Below, in pieces: positions 2,251 to 38,573 of a stretch of 64,000 nt of DNA. The notes beneath the pieces were generated by a model that saw nothing but the letters and a program-made list of their open reading frames with translations, ran no database searches and was not told the origin of the DNA. The stretch is from contig PBIO01000020.1 in the NCBI GenBank assembly GCA_002720865.1, positions 1 to 64,000 of the forward strand, in the 5' to 3' direction. The position numbers and the translations under genes are program-made. Positions within the stretch are counted from its first letter, which is position 1; each line of letters begins with the position of its first letter. This stretch comes from Halobacteriovorax sp. Its GTDB lineage: Bacteria > Bdellovibrionota > Bacteriovoracia > Bacteriovoracales > Bacteriovoracaceae.

Positions 2251-3932
2251 AGTCCGTACTTCCCCTTTGAAACGGTCTTCACTGTAAAGTTAATAATGGC
2301 CACAATCGCTATTGTGATTAGGGCCAAGACCGCTGAGCCACCACCTGAGGCGTCGGCATATTCTTGAAGTTGAAAAATTAATGTTCCTAATGTTTCTAAA
2401 CCAGGACCAGAAAGTAGAATGGTCATGGTGAGCTCTGAAAAACAAGGCATAAAAACTAAGAACCAGCTGGCCACTAGAGCCGGCTTCATTAGCGGAAACC
2501 AGATCGTTCTCATGGTTGTAAGCCAGCTTGCCCCAGAAACTCTCGCAGCCTCTGCTAAGACATCATCGATTTGTCCAAAGCCATCACCACAAGTTCTAAG
2601 AGCAAAATTTAAATACTTAGCAATATAGGCCATGGCGATGAGATAAATCGTATTATAAAGTGGCACACTAAAGCCTAAGATTCCACTAGAGAAAGTTAGA
2701 ATAAAGGCAAAGGCTAAAACCGTTCCGGGAGTCGCATAAGGAAGGGATGCTAAAATCTCTACTACCCCTCTTCCTTTTATTTTGGTTTTTTGAACGATAT
2801 AGGAAAGTATCATTCCAAAAGTGACCGCAATCGTTGCGGCCCAAAATGCCAGTTTGGTTGAATTCCAAAGGGCGCGAGGGGTCTCATCTGTCTCAAAAAA
2901 GATTTTATAAAAATTTTGAAAGCCCATATTATCTAAAGTTAACGAGCCCTGAACTTTTGAAAGAGCTGTCACAAGGATTCCTCCTAGGGGAAGAATAAAG
3001 ATAACAAGAAAACTTAGCCCCATGGCAAAGAGCATAGGGAAGCGAAGAGCGCCTAAATCAATTAGACTTGGCCTAGAGGTTTTCCCACCCACAGTTTTAA
3101 AGTGCCCCTTGCTCATTAATCTTTGATTGGCCCATAAGACTATGACGGCCAACACTAATAGAATAATCGAAAGTGCCCCTGCCGTGTAGGTACCGCTAAC
3201 GGAGCCCATTTTCATAAAGGTATAAATTCTTGTGGTTACTAAATAGATAGAGGCCGGATTTCCAATCATGGCAGGCACGCCAAACGAAGCCGCCGCCGCA
3301 AGGATGACTAACAAGACTCCAGATAATAAGGCCGGCATAATGATGGGAACAGTTATTTGAAAAAAGACACGAAGTGGACCGGCTCCACTTAGTCTAGCTG
3401 CCTCTTCAAGACTTGGGTCCATTCTATCCAGGGCCGCGAGAAGTGAGAGCAAAATAAAAGTATAAAAAAAGCAGCTCATCACCCAAATTAACCCGCCATA
3501 GGTATAGATATTAATGGTTCCTTGTCCTAGCCAAATATTTAAAATTCCTGTTGTAGGGTTTGCTAAATATATCCAAGCGATAGCGCCAATATAAGGAGGA
3601 ATAGCGTAGGGCAAACAGAACCATGAACGAAGTTTATTTGCCCCGGGGACATTTGTTCTGGTTAAAAGCCAACTTAGAGGCAGGGCCATAAGAGTAGATA
3701 AAAAGGCGGTACCAAGGGAGATACTTACAGTATTTTTTATGGCCAATAAAGTTGTTTTGTTATCAAAGATCTTTAAAAAATATTTTAAATCAAAGACTCC
3801 AGCGGGCATGGGAAAAGTTATTTTCCCGAAAAGAGTTAAAAATGGATAAAGGCAAATCAGTAATAAAAATAAAACTGAAATGCCTAAAATAAAAACTGTG
3901 CTGCCCTGCTGGCCCTTAAGAAAACTTCTCAC
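2247..3932 (-). CDS. fbpB: ABC transporter permease, fused two-domain ferric-iron type
   Basis: Inner-membrane permease of 561 residues with about twelve hydrophobic segments in two homologous halves, as in FbpB/AfuB-type transporters. Each half carries the EAA-like loop that docks the ATPase: LEEAARLSGAGPLRVFFQI in the first half and LAEAARVSGASWLTTMRTI in the second. The two halves are joined around residue 290 by a short cytoplasmic linker (GHFKTVGGKTSRPS). It abuts the binding-protein gene (shared base at 3932) and overlaps the ATPase gene, so the three form one operon transcribed leftward. The substrate could also be thiamine, a polyamine or a phosphonate, since these permeases look alike. 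Confidence 0.87.
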   Translation of the reverse strand: MRSFLKGQQGSTVFILGISVLFLLLICLYPFLTLFGKITFPMPAGVFDLKYFLKIFDNKTTLLAIKNTVSISLGTAFLSTLMALPLSWLLTRTNVPGANKLRSWFCLPYAIPPYIGAIAWIYLANPTTGILNIWLGQGTINIYTYGGLIWVMSCFFYTFILLSLLAALDRMDPSLEEAARLSGAGPLRVFFQITVPIIMPALLSGVLLVILAAAASFGVPAMIGNPASIYLVTTRIYTFMKMGSVSGTYTAGALSIILLVLAVIVLWANQRLMSKGHFKTVGGKTSRPSLIDLGALRFPMLFAMGLSFLVIFILPLGGILVTALSKVQGSLTLDNMGFQNFYKIFFETDETPRALWNSTKLAFWAATIAVTFGMILSYIVQKTKIKGRGVVEILASLPYATPGTVLAFAFILTFSSGILGFSVPLYNTIYLIAMAYIAKYLNFALRTCGDGFGQIDDVLAEAARVSGASWLTTMRTIWFPLMKPALVASWFLVFMPCFSELTMTILLSGPGLETLGTLIFQLQEYADASGGGSAVLALITIAIVAIINFTVKTVSKGKYGL

Positions 3933-35182: not shown

Positions 35183-36139
35183 ATGAAAAAAACTTTTTCT
35201 CTTACTGGCCTCTTACTCTTTGCCACATTAGCTCAGGCTAAAGTTACGAACTCTTATAGCCTTTCAAAACTAATGAATAAGAGCGAAAACCTCAGTTCAC
35301 TAGAGCTGTTCTGGCTAGGCCAAAATGGACCCCTTAATAAGAATTACGGAGTTACTGGAAGTTATGGCCCCTTTGGAATACTCGGACCTTTCGGCGATGA
35401 ATGGTGGAATGCTACACCTTGGATAAATGGAACTAAGAGCTGGAAAGATTTCGCAAACAAAATAGGCGCAATTGGTGGTCCCTTAAGTGAATATGGCCCT
35501 CTTCTTATCACGACGGAATTTGGTCAGGCCCTTAGCTCCTACGACTTCGGTCCTAATAGCGGTGAAATTTTAGCAGCTGGAGGAGTTCTTCATAGCGTAG
35601 GTCCTTCAGGCCTAAACGGAGTTATGGGTGTTGGTGGACCTCTAGGACCCCACGGGATTCATGGTTATAAAAGAGATGAAATTGGAAAGTATAGAAACAA
35701 GAATAAGAAGATTGTTAAGAGCATCATGGTCAAAACAATAGATGGGAAAAAGCGCTTTCCACTTTATGAGCTTTATAAAGAAGGAATCGCTAAGGAACTA
35801 ACTGATTTAGATTCCTCCTTCGTGGCTCAGGATAAGTTAAGTAGCTCAAGTGATAAGCATCAATACAAAATTACTGCTAGCTCTAAACGATGGGTAAATA
35901 TAACTCTCGTTTCTGCCTACACTTTGGACAGTCTTTCTTTAAGGCTTTTAGACGAAAAAGGAAATATTATAGAAGTCTCTGATGATTCATATAGGTCTAA
36001 CTTCATAAGCTTTAAAACGAATAAAAAGACGGCCCTTAAGATTGAAGTCAGTTTAAAAAATAGTTTTCAGTTTTTAATGAAGCCCTATAGGTTATTTGTA
36101 ACAGAAGCCCCCGCAGGGGCCACTGAAGTTAAGCGATAG
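35183..36139 (+). CDS. secreted Gly-Pro-rich protein with PPC-like C-terminal domain
   Basis: MKKTFSLTGLLLFATLAQA is a clean signal peptide, so I start at 35183; an in-frame ATG at 35123 would place 20 non-signal residues ahead of it. Residues about 45-175 carry recurring GPxG units: YGPFGILGPFGDEWW, IGGPLSEYGP, FGPNSGEILAAGG, GPSGLNGVMGVGGPLGPHG. The last 100 residues (HQYKITASSKRWVNITLVS through YRLFVTEAP) look like the beta-sandwich PPC domain often appended to secreted proteases, but there is no protease. No ribosome-binding site is obvious. Function unknown. Confidence 0.75.
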   Translation: MKKTFSLTGLLLFATLAQAKVTNSYSLSKLMNKSENLSSLELFWLGQNGPLNKNYGVTGSYGPFGILGPFGDEWWNATPWINGTKSWKDFANKIGAIGGPLSEYGPLLITTEFGQALSSYDFGPNSGEILAAGGVLHSVGPSGLNGVMGVGGPLGPHGIHGYKRDEIGKYRNKNKKIVKSIMVKTIDGKKRFPLYELYKEGIAKELTDLDSSFVAQDKLSSSSDKHQYKITASSKRWVNITLVSAYTLDSLSLRLLDEKGNIIEVSDDSYRSNFISFKTNKKTALKIEVSLKNSFQFLMKPYRLFVTEAPAGATEVKR

Positions 36140-36202
36140 TCATTAGCGCTATATAAAAAATAAATAAACAAAATAAAATTGTATCTTTTCCGTCATTTTT
36201 CA

Positions 36203-36430
36203 TCAGATCCCTCCAAGCCTAGTCTTTTTAACCTGTACTAAAACACCAGGAGTAAAAAGCCTGTTAAAAAAATCCAAAGGCCCTGAACTAGTAAAAAAGC
36301 GTAAAGGCCTGAACTTAATTCTTGCTCCAAGAGTTCTTGGCGGAATAAAACTCCCATTCACCTTAGGAGCGTTGATCCAGGTTTTTGAAATTAAAACTGT
36401 GTGGCTGCTACTGTAATTTCTAGAGTTCAT
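36203..36430 (-). CDS. small coupled ORF B, unknown
   Basis: 75-residue ORF starting at 36430 in an ATGA overlap with the stop of ORF A, preceded by GGAGGATAGG. The product (MNSRNYSSSHTVLISKTWI, ARIKFRPLRFFTSSGPLDFF, VLVQVKKTRLGGI) is basic and shows no family. The strong ribosome-binding site, coupling and otherwise empty region support it as a real gene, but short length leaves doubt. Confidence 0.5.
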   Translation of the reverse strand: MNSRNYSSSHTVLISKTWINAPKVNGSFIPPRTLGARIKFRPLRFFTSSGPLDFFNRLFTPGVLVQVKKTRLGGI

Positions 36431-36681
36431 CCTATCCTCCGATTTAAAAGAGAGAGGCATATCTCTCTTTTGCGAATCCTTTCTTTATCTGTTCCTAGAA
36501 GAGCAAAGCGAGAAAGGCCCAATCTCAAAGTAGACTGAATCTTCTGGCTACGAAGAGGGATTATTAAGCCAGACTCTCCCGCCGACTTATCTCTCCTTCC
36601 TCGCTTCGCCTTTTCTAAGTATTTTTCTACTGAGGCCAGGTCCCCAGTAGGATTAAAAAAATGTGTGTGTAGTGCATTCAT
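36427..36681 (-). CDS. small coupled ORF A, unknown
   Basis: 84-residue ORF (MNALHTHFFNPTGDLASVEKY, KRGRRDKSAGESGLIIPLRS, FALLGTDKERIRKREICLSL), basic and helical in its second half. GGGGA precedes the ATG. It follows, by about 40 bases, a well-formed promoter (TTGCAC, 16-base spacer, TATTAT) loaded with direct repeats. No homology recognised. Together with ORF B it fills the only stretch longer than 300 bases in the window that is without an obvious gene (36140-36800); the rest of that stretch shows nothing else. Confidence 0.5.
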   Translation of the reverse strand: MNALHTHFFNPTGDLASVEKYLEKAKRGRRDKSAGESGLIIPLRSQKIQSTLRLGLSRFALLGTDKERIRKREICLSLLNRRIG

Positions 36682-36720
36682 GAGTTGGTCCCCAAATTTT
36701 CCAACCCCTCTTCAAAATCC

Positions 36721-36748
36721 ATAATACGTAAGTTTTGCGTAAGTGCAA
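36721..36748 (-). promoter_or_regulatory. promoter for ORFs A and B, overlapped by direct repeats
   Basis: Minus strand TTGCAC (36748-36743), 16-base spacer, TATTAT (36726-36721). Initiation near 36714 gives a leader of about 33 bases to the ATG at 36681. Repeat copies 1 and 2 fill the spacer. Confidence 0.55.
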
Positions 36749-36774
36749 TATGTTTTTGCGTAACTTTTGCGTAA
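36722..36774. repeat. four direct repeats TTTTGCGTAA, probable regulator sites
   Basis: Exact copies of TTTTGCGTAA start at 36733, 36754 and 36765; a diverged copy (7 of 10 matching) starts at 36722. The intervals are 11, 21 and 11 bases, close to one, two and one helical turns, so all face the same side of the DNA. Two tandem pairs lie 32 bases apart, one between the -35 and -10, one just upstream of the -35. Confidence 0.7.
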
Positions 36775-36800
36775 GTAGAATAAATTCGGATACTTATGAC

Positions 36801-38573
36801 CTAAAAATAGGCATGGAGCTGGGCCCTGGGCCTCATTTTTTTCTCAGTTGAAAGGTATTCTCCTCCAACTTCTAGGACAACTTGGCGCCCTAAAGAAAGA
36901 TTAAACTTAGGGCCTAGTAAGACTTCTTTGTCAGAGGATTTAGATGGCAGATATTCAGATTCAAATACAAATTGAAAATTTTTCGTTAATGACTTCTTAA
37001 AGCTTAGTTTTAAAAGAGCTTCAATTTTCTTTTTTCCAGTTCCAGTATCTATGGAGCCTTTCGCCTCGGGAATAAAAAAGAGCTGCCAAGAACTCCTTAA
37101 AAGAGAAAACCCTATTCCTCCAGAAAGACTAATTTTCTTGGGGAGTTTTTCTTCCCTTCTTTCTTGATTGGCAAACAAGTTTATCTCCCATGAAAAATGA
37201 GGATAACTAAATGAGAAGTTTTGAAGAGAGGTTATTTTAATAAGGTCAAATCTTCGAAGCTCAAACTCTTTTTCTTCATAAAAAATCATTCCCTCTAAAA
37301 ACTTAATATAAGACTTTTCATCATACCCAAGGATCGGGTCGTCAAAAGAATGAAAGCCATAGGAAAATTCTACGTAAGGAGTCTCTAAATATCCAACCCC
37401 AAGTTTCTTAAACTTATGGGCCAGGTCAGGGGCCCTGTCTTGATTCTCTTCTTTTAAATCTATAGCAATTGGAGCTTCTTCCAAGTTGGCTCTCGCAATA
37501 AGCACCTTATCCATCTTTTCTTTTGAGGAAGCGTCTAGTTTAGTCCCTGCCTTATAATTATCAAACTTCCAAAGATCAATAAGTAAATCAAACTCATCGG
37601 CAGTTTTAAGTTTTGAAATTTGGTTTACGTCCTCTTTCGCTGCAAAGACTCTACTAAGCTCACCTTTATCCATTCGATTCACGCGCGCCCATATCAATCT
37701 TTTAATGGCCGGCCTAAAACCAACTACCCGATGCTCTGACTTTTCTAAAACTTCTATTAGCGTCGTCTGAGGAACAACAAAGAGATCGGACTTTGAAGAA
37801 AAATCCCATTCTGGCTTAACGGCCTCTAGGAGTGCCAGCACATGGGTCGAACAGTTTTCGTCTAAAAAATAATAAGAAAAGGTCGTCCCAGTAATAAGCT
37901 CCCAGACGTGAAGAAGCATTAATTCTTTTTCTTCCTCACTAATAGGAATTTTATATTCCCATAAGTCTCGACTTTCAGAATTATTATAAGCCCCTATATC
38001 CATATAGTGCGGTTTGATCTCTAGATAACTATCATAGCCTCCTGTCATTCCCTTAAAGGTGTAAATAAAAGAGTTATCGTCTGAGTTTGTTTGAGCCTGA
38101 AAGGCCAAGGAATAACCTAAAAGTTTTGAAGAGACTTTAGAGTCACTATATTTCTTTCGATCGAATCTTAAAAACGTATGCCCAAAAAGTGAGGCCGGGT
38201 TACTTGGATAAGCACTAGAGTACACTAAATACAAATCACCGGCGTCAATTCCTTTTAACCATTTGTCGAGTTCAGGACAAGCTCCCCGTTCTTTTAATTT
38301 TGTCTGGGTTCTAAGTAGCTTATGTCTGGCCGGGAAACGGCAAGCTAGATCTGGGTCTCGATTAAAGGCCTCTAAGGTTTTTACTAGCTCATCTTTGGGA
38401 TTTGTCATTCCCTCGCTAGAAAGAAAAAACTCGGGTCTTTTGGCCCGCGATTTATATCCAAAGAAACCTTTTTTATAATGAAGTAAATTTAGCCAAGGTT
38501 TAGAAAAGGCGAAGTCCTCTCCTGCATATAGAGAGGACGCCCAAAAAAATAGAAGTATTAACTTAAGTTGCAA
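36801..38573 (-). CDS. exported DUF4105 (Lnb-type periplasmic) protein
   Basis: Signal peptide MQLKLILLFFWASSLYA, then a region typical of DUF4105: LYLVYSSAYPSNPASLFGHTFLRF with the conserved GHTFLRF, TFKGMTGGYDSYLEIKPHY, and FSYYFLDENCSTHVLALLEA with the conserved NCS. The His and Cys are arranged as in papain-like/NlpC folds. The last 200 residues have alternating strands and end QLHAYF, suggesting a C-terminal outer-membrane barrel. 590 residues. Its start overlaps the end of the DUF3015 gene by 16 bases, so the two are co-transcribed. Function unknown. Confidence 0.82.
   Translation of the reverse strand: MQLKLILLFFWASSLYAGEDFAFSKPWLNLLHYKKGFFGYKSRAKRPEFFLSSEGMTNPKDELVKTLEAFNRDPDLACRFPARHKLLRTQTKLKERGACPELDKWLKGIDAGDLYLVYSSAYPSNPASLFGHTFLRFDRKKYSDSKVSSKLLGYSLAFQAQTNSDDNSFIYTFKGMTGGYDSYLEIKPHYMDIGAYNNSESRDLWEYKIPISEEEKELMLLHVWELITGTTFSYYFLDENCSTHVLALLEAVKPEWDFSSKSDLFVVPQTTLIEVLEKSEHRVVGFRPAIKRLIWARVNRMDKGELSRVFAAKEDVNQISKLKTADEFDLLIDLWKFDNYKAGTKLDASSKEKMDKVLIARANLEEAPIAIDLKEENQDRAPDLAHKFKKLGVGYLETPYVEFSYGFHSFDDPILGYDEKSYIKFLEGMIFYEEKEFELRRFDLIKITSLQNFSFSYPHFSWEINLFANQERREEKLPKKISLSGGIGFSLLRSSWQLFFIPEAKGSIDTGTGKKKIEALLKLSFKKSLTKNFQFVFESEYLPSKSSDKEVLLGPKFNLSLGRQVVLEVGGEYLSTEKKMRPRAQLHAYF

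What the first reader, a model, noticed from the sequence alone, without database searches (positions are those of the whole stretch)
36721..36776. Four in-phase direct repeats built into a promoter for two unknown small genes
Seen: TTTTGCGTAA copies at 36722 (diverged), 36733, 36754, 36765, spaced 11, 21 and 11 bases, over a promoter TTGCAC-16-TATTAT driving two coupled small ORFs. One pair lies inside the spacer, the other directly upstream of -35. This is typical of cooperative binding by a protein on one DNA face, or of a plasmid-type autoregulated unit.
Basis: partly seen in the sequence, partly recalled or inferred. Interest (0 to 1): 0.65.

Follow-up and report, generated by a model that had tools for sequence, protein, structure and literature searches.

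The report
LexA (SOS) operator before small-gene operon
The four repeats are two binding sites for LexA, the bacterial DNA-damage switch, in a direct-repeat form shared across this phylum of mostly predatory bacteria, and they control three tiny unstudied genes, the last of which encodes a 24-residue membrane peptide.

Summary
The repeats are real, correctly placed and far beyond chance. They are two tandem LexA (SOS) operators, CTTACGCAAAA(C/G)TTACG, i.e. TTACGC-N5-TTACG direct repeats of period 11. In the same genome the box precedes lexA-dinB, recA, imuA-imuB and umuDC. 43 of 55 examined box loci in the family adjoin lexA, recA, umuDC, imuAB or dinB. In 129 family genomes the exact double operator occurs only at lexA and at this operon, in all three species of the genus. 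Arrangements like 11-21-11 are common at lexA promoters of the family (Bacteriovoracaceae). Period-11 TTAC or TACG repeats also precede lexA in many other Bdellovibrionota families, including the group that carries the published Bdellovibrio TTAC-N3-GTAA palindrome, where both coexist. Overlapping stop/start codons suggest coupling. Best reading: an SOS-induced small-protein operon whose output is a membrane peptide, working like E. coli dinQ/tisB or Caulobacter sidA but not a detectable homologue. Regulation by LexA is about 95% likely. The peptide's action (growth or division arrest) is inference, about 50%.

The parts
36726..36743 (-). LexA operator O1 (CTTACGCAAAACTTACGT), filling the -35/-10 spacer
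   Evidence: identical in G001 and G002
36758..36775 (-). LexA operator O2 (CTTACGCAAAAGTTACGC), directly upstream of -35, 32 bp from O1
   Evidence: identical in G001, one change in G002
36721..36748 (-). predicted sigma70-type promoter TTGCAC-16-TATTAT, start expected about 36714
   Evidence: sequence; layout conserved in G001 and G002. The generic promoter scan did not list it
36404..36716 (-). structured leader RNA, nearly frozen in sequence between G000 and G001
   Evidence: 90-100% identity per 50-bp bin against mostly 50-88% in nearby genes; fold z -3.15 here and -3.76 in G002
36427..36681 (-). ORF A, 84 aa, basic; stop overlaps the start of B (ATGA)
   Evidence: dS 0.051, dN 0.037 against lexA dS 0.873, so probably read mainly for coupling or as RNA
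36595..36609 (-). 5' arm of the long leader stem, paired with 36503-36517; stem kept in G002 with a different interior
36446..36471 (-). 10-bp perfect hairpin AAAAGAGAGA-UAUGCC-UCUCUCUUUU just before the ribosome site of B; identical in all three species
36203..36430 (-). ORF B, 75 aa, basic (+11), no known family; stop overlaps the start of C (TGATG)
   Evidence: dN/dS about 0.36
36129..36203 (-). ORF C, 24-aa single-transmembrane peptide MKNDGKDTILFCLFIFYIALMTIA
   Evidence: synonymous sites saturated, dN 0.05-0.10; hydropathy 2.5
36106..36120 (.). G+C-rich hairpin after C, possible terminator shared with the convergent gene; weak T run
   Evidence: sequence and fold; not conserved as a clear terminator in G002

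Best explanation
The repeats are two tandem LexA operators of the direct-repeat type (TTACGC-N5-TTACG, half-sites 11 bp apart, operators 32 bp or about three helical turns apart) over the promoter of an SOS-induced operon. Without damage, two LexA dimers sit on the same DNA face, one between -35 and -10, and block RNA polymerase. After damage, RecA-driven self-cleavage of LexA frees the promoter. The transcript begins with a strongly structured leader holding ORF A. Ribosomes pass from A to B (ATGA overlap) and from B to C (TGATG overlap), so the 24-aa inner-membrane peptide C is made only under SOS. C most likely slows growth or blocks division or energization at the membrane while DNA is repaired. 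Shown here by sequence: the operators, their association with SOS genes, conservation of B, C and the cistron junctions. Inferred: binding by LexA (about 0.95), actual coupling (about 0.8), C as arrest peptide (about 0.5).
For: The same box precedes lexA-dinB, imuA-imuB, umuDC and recA in this genome and sits beside lexA, recA, umuDC, imuAB or dinB at 43 of 55 loci checked in the family. LexA here is a full LexA: TIGR00498 172 bits over a cutoff of 111, HTH and S24 domains, invariant Ala-Gly, Ser and Lys. 107 half-site pairs spaced 11 in 69 lexA promoters against 0.04 by chance, with spacings around 11-21-11 frequent. The exact double operator is found in 129 genomes only at lexA and at this operon, in 3 of 3 species of the genus. 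C: protein-level purifying selection and hydrophobic helix. Structured leader. Abutting or overlapping stop/start codons kept in the relatives.
Against: No binding, transcript or phenotype data. A, B and C are found only in this genus, so conservation rests on three genomes. The leader's near identity between two species could be recombination rather than function, as G002 has diverged there. No antisense RNA gene was recognised. B could be the effector instead of C.
Confidence: 0.85

Rival explanations
1. A type I toxin-antitoxin unit of the tisB/istR or dinQ/agr type: C is a membrane toxin, the structured leader silences the primary transcript and an antisense RNA is the antitoxin.
For: Small single-helix peptide, LexA operators over the promoter and a folded leader, as in dinQ, which has two LexA operators and a 27-aa peptide (PMC3567139), and tisB (PMC11575346).
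Against: No antisense promoter or complementary RNA gene found; two further cistrons precede C; no Pfam toxin match.
Confidence: 0.3
2. A SidA-like or SulA-like SOS checkpoint: C (or B) binds late division proteins such as FtsW/FtsN and delays septation until repair is done.
For: Caulobacter SidA is a 29-aa SOS-induced inner-membrane peptide that acts on FtsW (PMC4211646), in a class whose LexA also uses a direct repeat; SOS division inhibitors are often lineage-specific (general knowledge), like C.
Against: No sequence family match; the target is unknown; no phenotype.
Confidence: 0.3
3. The operator-leader unit is the functional product: a LexA-controlled structured RNA, with A and B mainly spacer reading frames.
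For: A evolves as nucleotide, not protein (dS 0.051); leader fold z -3.15 and -3.76; long stem and terminal hairpin kept.
Against: B and C show protein-level selection and stop/start junctions are kept; the reading frame of A is kept in G002 despite length change; no Rfam match.
Confidence: 0.12
4. Another repressor (XRE-type or plasmid autoregulator) uses the repeats, not LexA.
For: Only that binding has not been measured.
Against: The box precedes lexA itself, recA, imuAB and umuDC across the family; no DNA-binding domain was detected in the operon's products.
Confidence: 0.04

Closest known systems
Direct-repeat LexA operators of Alphaproteobacteria (GTTC-N7-GTTC)
   Same: Direct repeat, half-sites 11 bp apart, before SOS genes (motif as cited in PMC3323433, and PMC8565304)
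   Different: Half-site TTACGC instead of GTTC; unrelated phylum; often doubled about 32 bp apart at lexA and here
LexA box of Bdellovibrio bacteriovorus (TTAC-N3-GTAA, Campoy et al. 2005, as cited)
   Same: TTAC half-site, same phylum
   Different: Inverted rather than direct; the title of the 2005 report says canonical SOS genes are not LexA-controlled there, whereas here recA, umuDC, imuAB and dinB carry the box. In the probable Bdellovibrio genus g83 both the palindrome (15/16) and the period-11 direct repeat (16/16) are present and overlap
Balneolaeota LexA motif TTACACATATTTTWTACATA (PMC7739468)
   Same: Direct repeat with TTAC/TAC half-sites
   Different: Half-site period about 13, not 11; different phylum
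E. coli dinQ/agrB and tisB/istR-1
   Same: LexA operator(s) over the promoter (two in dinQ), leader, tiny single-transmembrane peptide
   Different: No sequence relation found; two upstream cistrons; no antisense RNA found
Caulobacter SidA
   Same: SOS-induced inner-membrane peptide of under 30 aa
   Different: No detected homology; no known operon partners like A and B

Membership tests
LexA (SOS) operator | Same motif in front of lexA itself | tested here: met
LexA (SOS) operator | Same motif in front of other core SOS genes (recA, umuDC, imuAB, dinB) | tested here: met
LexA (SOS) operator | Site overlaps the core promoter | tested here: met
   O1 fills the -35/-10 spacer of the predicted promoter
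LexA (SOS) operator | Genome encodes a LexA with HTH, Ala-Gly cleavage site and Ser/Lys dyad | tested here: met
LexA (SOS) operator | Bound by LexA; induced by DNA damage via RecA | not testable with these tools
   needs binding assay and transcript data
Type I toxin-antitoxin (tisB/dinQ type) | Tiny single-transmembrane peptide under LexA control | tested here: met
   by sequence only:
Type I toxin-antitoxin (tisB/dinQ type) | Inhibitory structured leader | tested here: inconclusive
   leader is structured; inhibition not testable
Type I toxin-antitoxin (tisB/dinQ type) | Antisense RNA antitoxin | tested here: inconclusive
   no candidate; absence not proven
Type I toxin-antitoxin (tisB/dinQ type) | Sequence homology to known toxin families | tested here: not met
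   no Pfam, NCBIfam or PHROG match; weak test for 24 aa
SulA/SidA-type division inhibitor | Sequence family match | tested here: not met
SulA/SidA-type division inhibitor | Blocks septation through the divisome | not testable with these tools
   needs expression and deletion
Plasmid-type autoregulated unit | Operon encodes its own DNA-binding repressor | tested here: not met
   no DNA-binding domain detected in A, B or C

The most novel reading that the evidence does not exclude
The ancestral LexA operator of the Bdellovibrionota is a direct repeat, TTAC(G/A)C-N5-TTAC with period 11, and the published Bdellovibrio palindrome is a later overlay in one family. In this genus LexA also controls a previously unknown SOS effector operon: a structured leader with three coupled mini-genes ending in a 24-aa membrane arrest peptide.
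Probability: 0.4. Interest if true: 0.65.

Novelty: new variant of a known kind. Interest (0 to 1): 0.55.

Why it matters
It identifies the SOS box of the Bacteriovoracaceae, for which the open literature searched holds no report, and gives a consensus that assigns the regulon by pattern search. It suggests that the short palindrome described for Bdellovibrio overlies an older direct repeat, which bears on how LexA switches between inverted and direct sites. It also adds a genus-specific SOS operon with a tiny membrane peptide, in line with the view that different lineages independently acquired such peptides as damage-response effectors.

Tried and rejected
Mobile element or dispersed repeat: rejected, since apart from short matches only the operator part of 36100-36900 recurs in the genome. 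Plasmid autoregulation: rejected, no DNA-binding domain detected. Known families for A, B, C: none in Pfam, NCBIfam or PHROGs. Relatives of B in viral contigs: none. Weak hits of B (best G076, E 1e-4, with an internal stop) and of C outside the genus: treated as chance, since no clear LexA box lies near those checked. Rfam: only a sub-threshold chance match. The MAFFT alignments of the region paired opposite strands and were not used; replace them. The Campoy 2005 paper and the Verrucomicrobia LexA paper are not held, so they are cited only through others. A narrow search for the TACGG form of the box was too strict to be informative.

Full report
OBSERVATION. The repeats are as described: 36722 (7/10), 36733, 36754 and 36765, spaced 11, 21 and 11, over TTGCAC-16-TATTAT on the minus strand. 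Read on the minus strand they are two units, CTTACGCAAAAGTTACGC (36775-36758) and CTTACGCAAAACTTACGT (36743-36726). Two exact TTACGCN5TTACG matches in one 64-kb window are well above chance (3 matches with up to 1 mismatch against 0.55 expected, none of 100 shuffles reaching 3).

WHAT BINDS THERE. A search of the own and related genomes with the 801-bp region returned, besides orthologous loci, short matches to the repeat alone. The genes behind those matches are lexA followed by dinB, recA, umuD-umuC and imuA-imuB. In the window's own genome (G000) the box (up to 2 mismatches) occurs 9 times and the reversed control 0 times: lexA-dinB (two boxes), this operon (two boxes), imuA-imuB, recA, umuDC (two identical copies) and one further mini-gene. 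Across 129 genomes of the family there are 193 hits against 19 for the control, and 43 of 55 box loci examined lie beside lexA, recA, umuDC, imuAB or dinB. Four more, all in one genus, precede a putative DNA modification/repair radical SAM protein; the one scanned matches TIGR03916. The regulator of such a gene set is LexA. The LexA encoded here passes the NCBIfam lexA cutoff (172 bits, cutoff 111) and keeps the HTH, the Ala-Gly cleavage site, the Ser and the Lys.

ARRANGEMENT. In 69 lexA promoters of named, mostly Bacteriovoracaceae/Halobacteriovorax, genomes, TACG half-sites are paired at exactly 11 bp 107 times against 0.04 expected. One part of the family uses TACGG in place of TACGC, with the same geometry. 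The exact double operator in the TACGC form occurs in 129 genomes at only two places per genome, lexA and this operon, and only in the three species of the window's genus.

PHYLUM VIEW. In 59 lexA promoters from other Bdellovibrionota families, TTAC pairs at spacing 11 occur 42 times against 0.18 expected. Families f11, f14, f19, f20, f21 and others have the direct repeat and no TTAC-N3-GTAA. The palindrome published for Bdellovibrio bacteriovorus (cited in PMC3323433 and PMC8565304) was found only in family f6, where 16 of 16 genomes of genus g83 have the direct repeat and 15 of 16 also the palindrome, overlapping it. Some families (f3, f7, f12 in part, f17) have other or no recognisable motifs.

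THE OPERON. Three cistrons follow. A (36427-36681) ends ATGA over the start of B; B (36203-36430) ends TGATG over the start of C; C (36129-36203) is MKNDGKDTILFCLFIFYIALMTIA. In G001 the A-B overlap is kept and B meets C as TAATG; in G002 both junctions are ATGA. Between G000 and G001, lexA has dS 0.873. C has saturated synonymous change but dN 0.05-0.10, so it is a protein under purifying selection. B has dS 0.32 and dN 0.12. A has dS 0.051 and dN 0.037: its DNA is nearly frozen with no sign of protein-level selection. The block of high identity runs from the operators to about 50 nt into B. The leader folds better than shuffles here (z -3.15) and in G002 (z -3.76), where the long stem is kept around a different interior, and a 10-bp hairpin just before the ribosome site of B is identical in all three. 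I cannot separate RNA constraint from a recombination tract between G000 and G001 with three genomes.

HOW IT LIKELY WORKS. LexA dimers on O1 and O2 block the promoter; RecA-stimulated cleavage after DNA damage releases it; the leader and coupled cistrons limit and time synthesis of C. C is a strongly hydrophobic helix (hydropathy 2.5-2.7). SOS-induced peptides of this size in other bacteria depolarize the membrane (TisB, PMC11575346), modulate membrane-dependent activities (DinQ, 27 aa, two LexA operators, PMC3567139) or block the divisome (SidA, 29 aa, PMC4211646). I therefore favour growth or division arrest by C, about 50%, with no way here to choose among these. No homology to any of them was found, so it is said to work like them, not to belong to them.

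NOVELTY. LexA operators and SOS membrane peptides are known kinds. The TTACGC-N5-TTACGC form, its doubling and its phylum-wide use were not found in the held literature, which excludes most subscription papers. The operon itself appears to be an undescribed, genus-specific member of the SOS regulon.

Noticed in passing
L067 around 2855-3160 (minus), L072, L076: A second LexA-box transcript (CTTACGCACGACTTACGC) in all three species of the genus, leading to a 26-codon ORF with a strong ribosome site in G000 (MHTGLTFKSEYREIRGPPNAVLLFLG) and hairpins; probably another SOS mini-gene or small RNA.
   Followed up: partly
G000 contig C10, L065 and L066: The umuDC locus occurs twice 70.0 kb apart, identical over 5.6 kb, on a 125.8-kb contig; looks like a circular element of about 70 kb (plasmid or phage) assembled almost twice, carrying SOS polymerase genes.
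   Followed up: partly
L257, L258, L263-L276 (lexA promoters of family f6): The published Bdellovibrio palindrome TTAC-N3-GTAA overlaps a period-11 TTAC direct repeat in these promoters.
   Followed up: yes
L053, L087, L090, L092: LexA box before a putative DNA modification/repair radical SAM protein (TIGR03916 in the copy scanned, L087) in one genus of the family.
   Followed up: partly
L187, L188, L189, L192, L194: Gemmatimonadetes lexA promoters carry repeated TTCGG motifs, possibly another direct-repeat LexA box.
   Followed up: no
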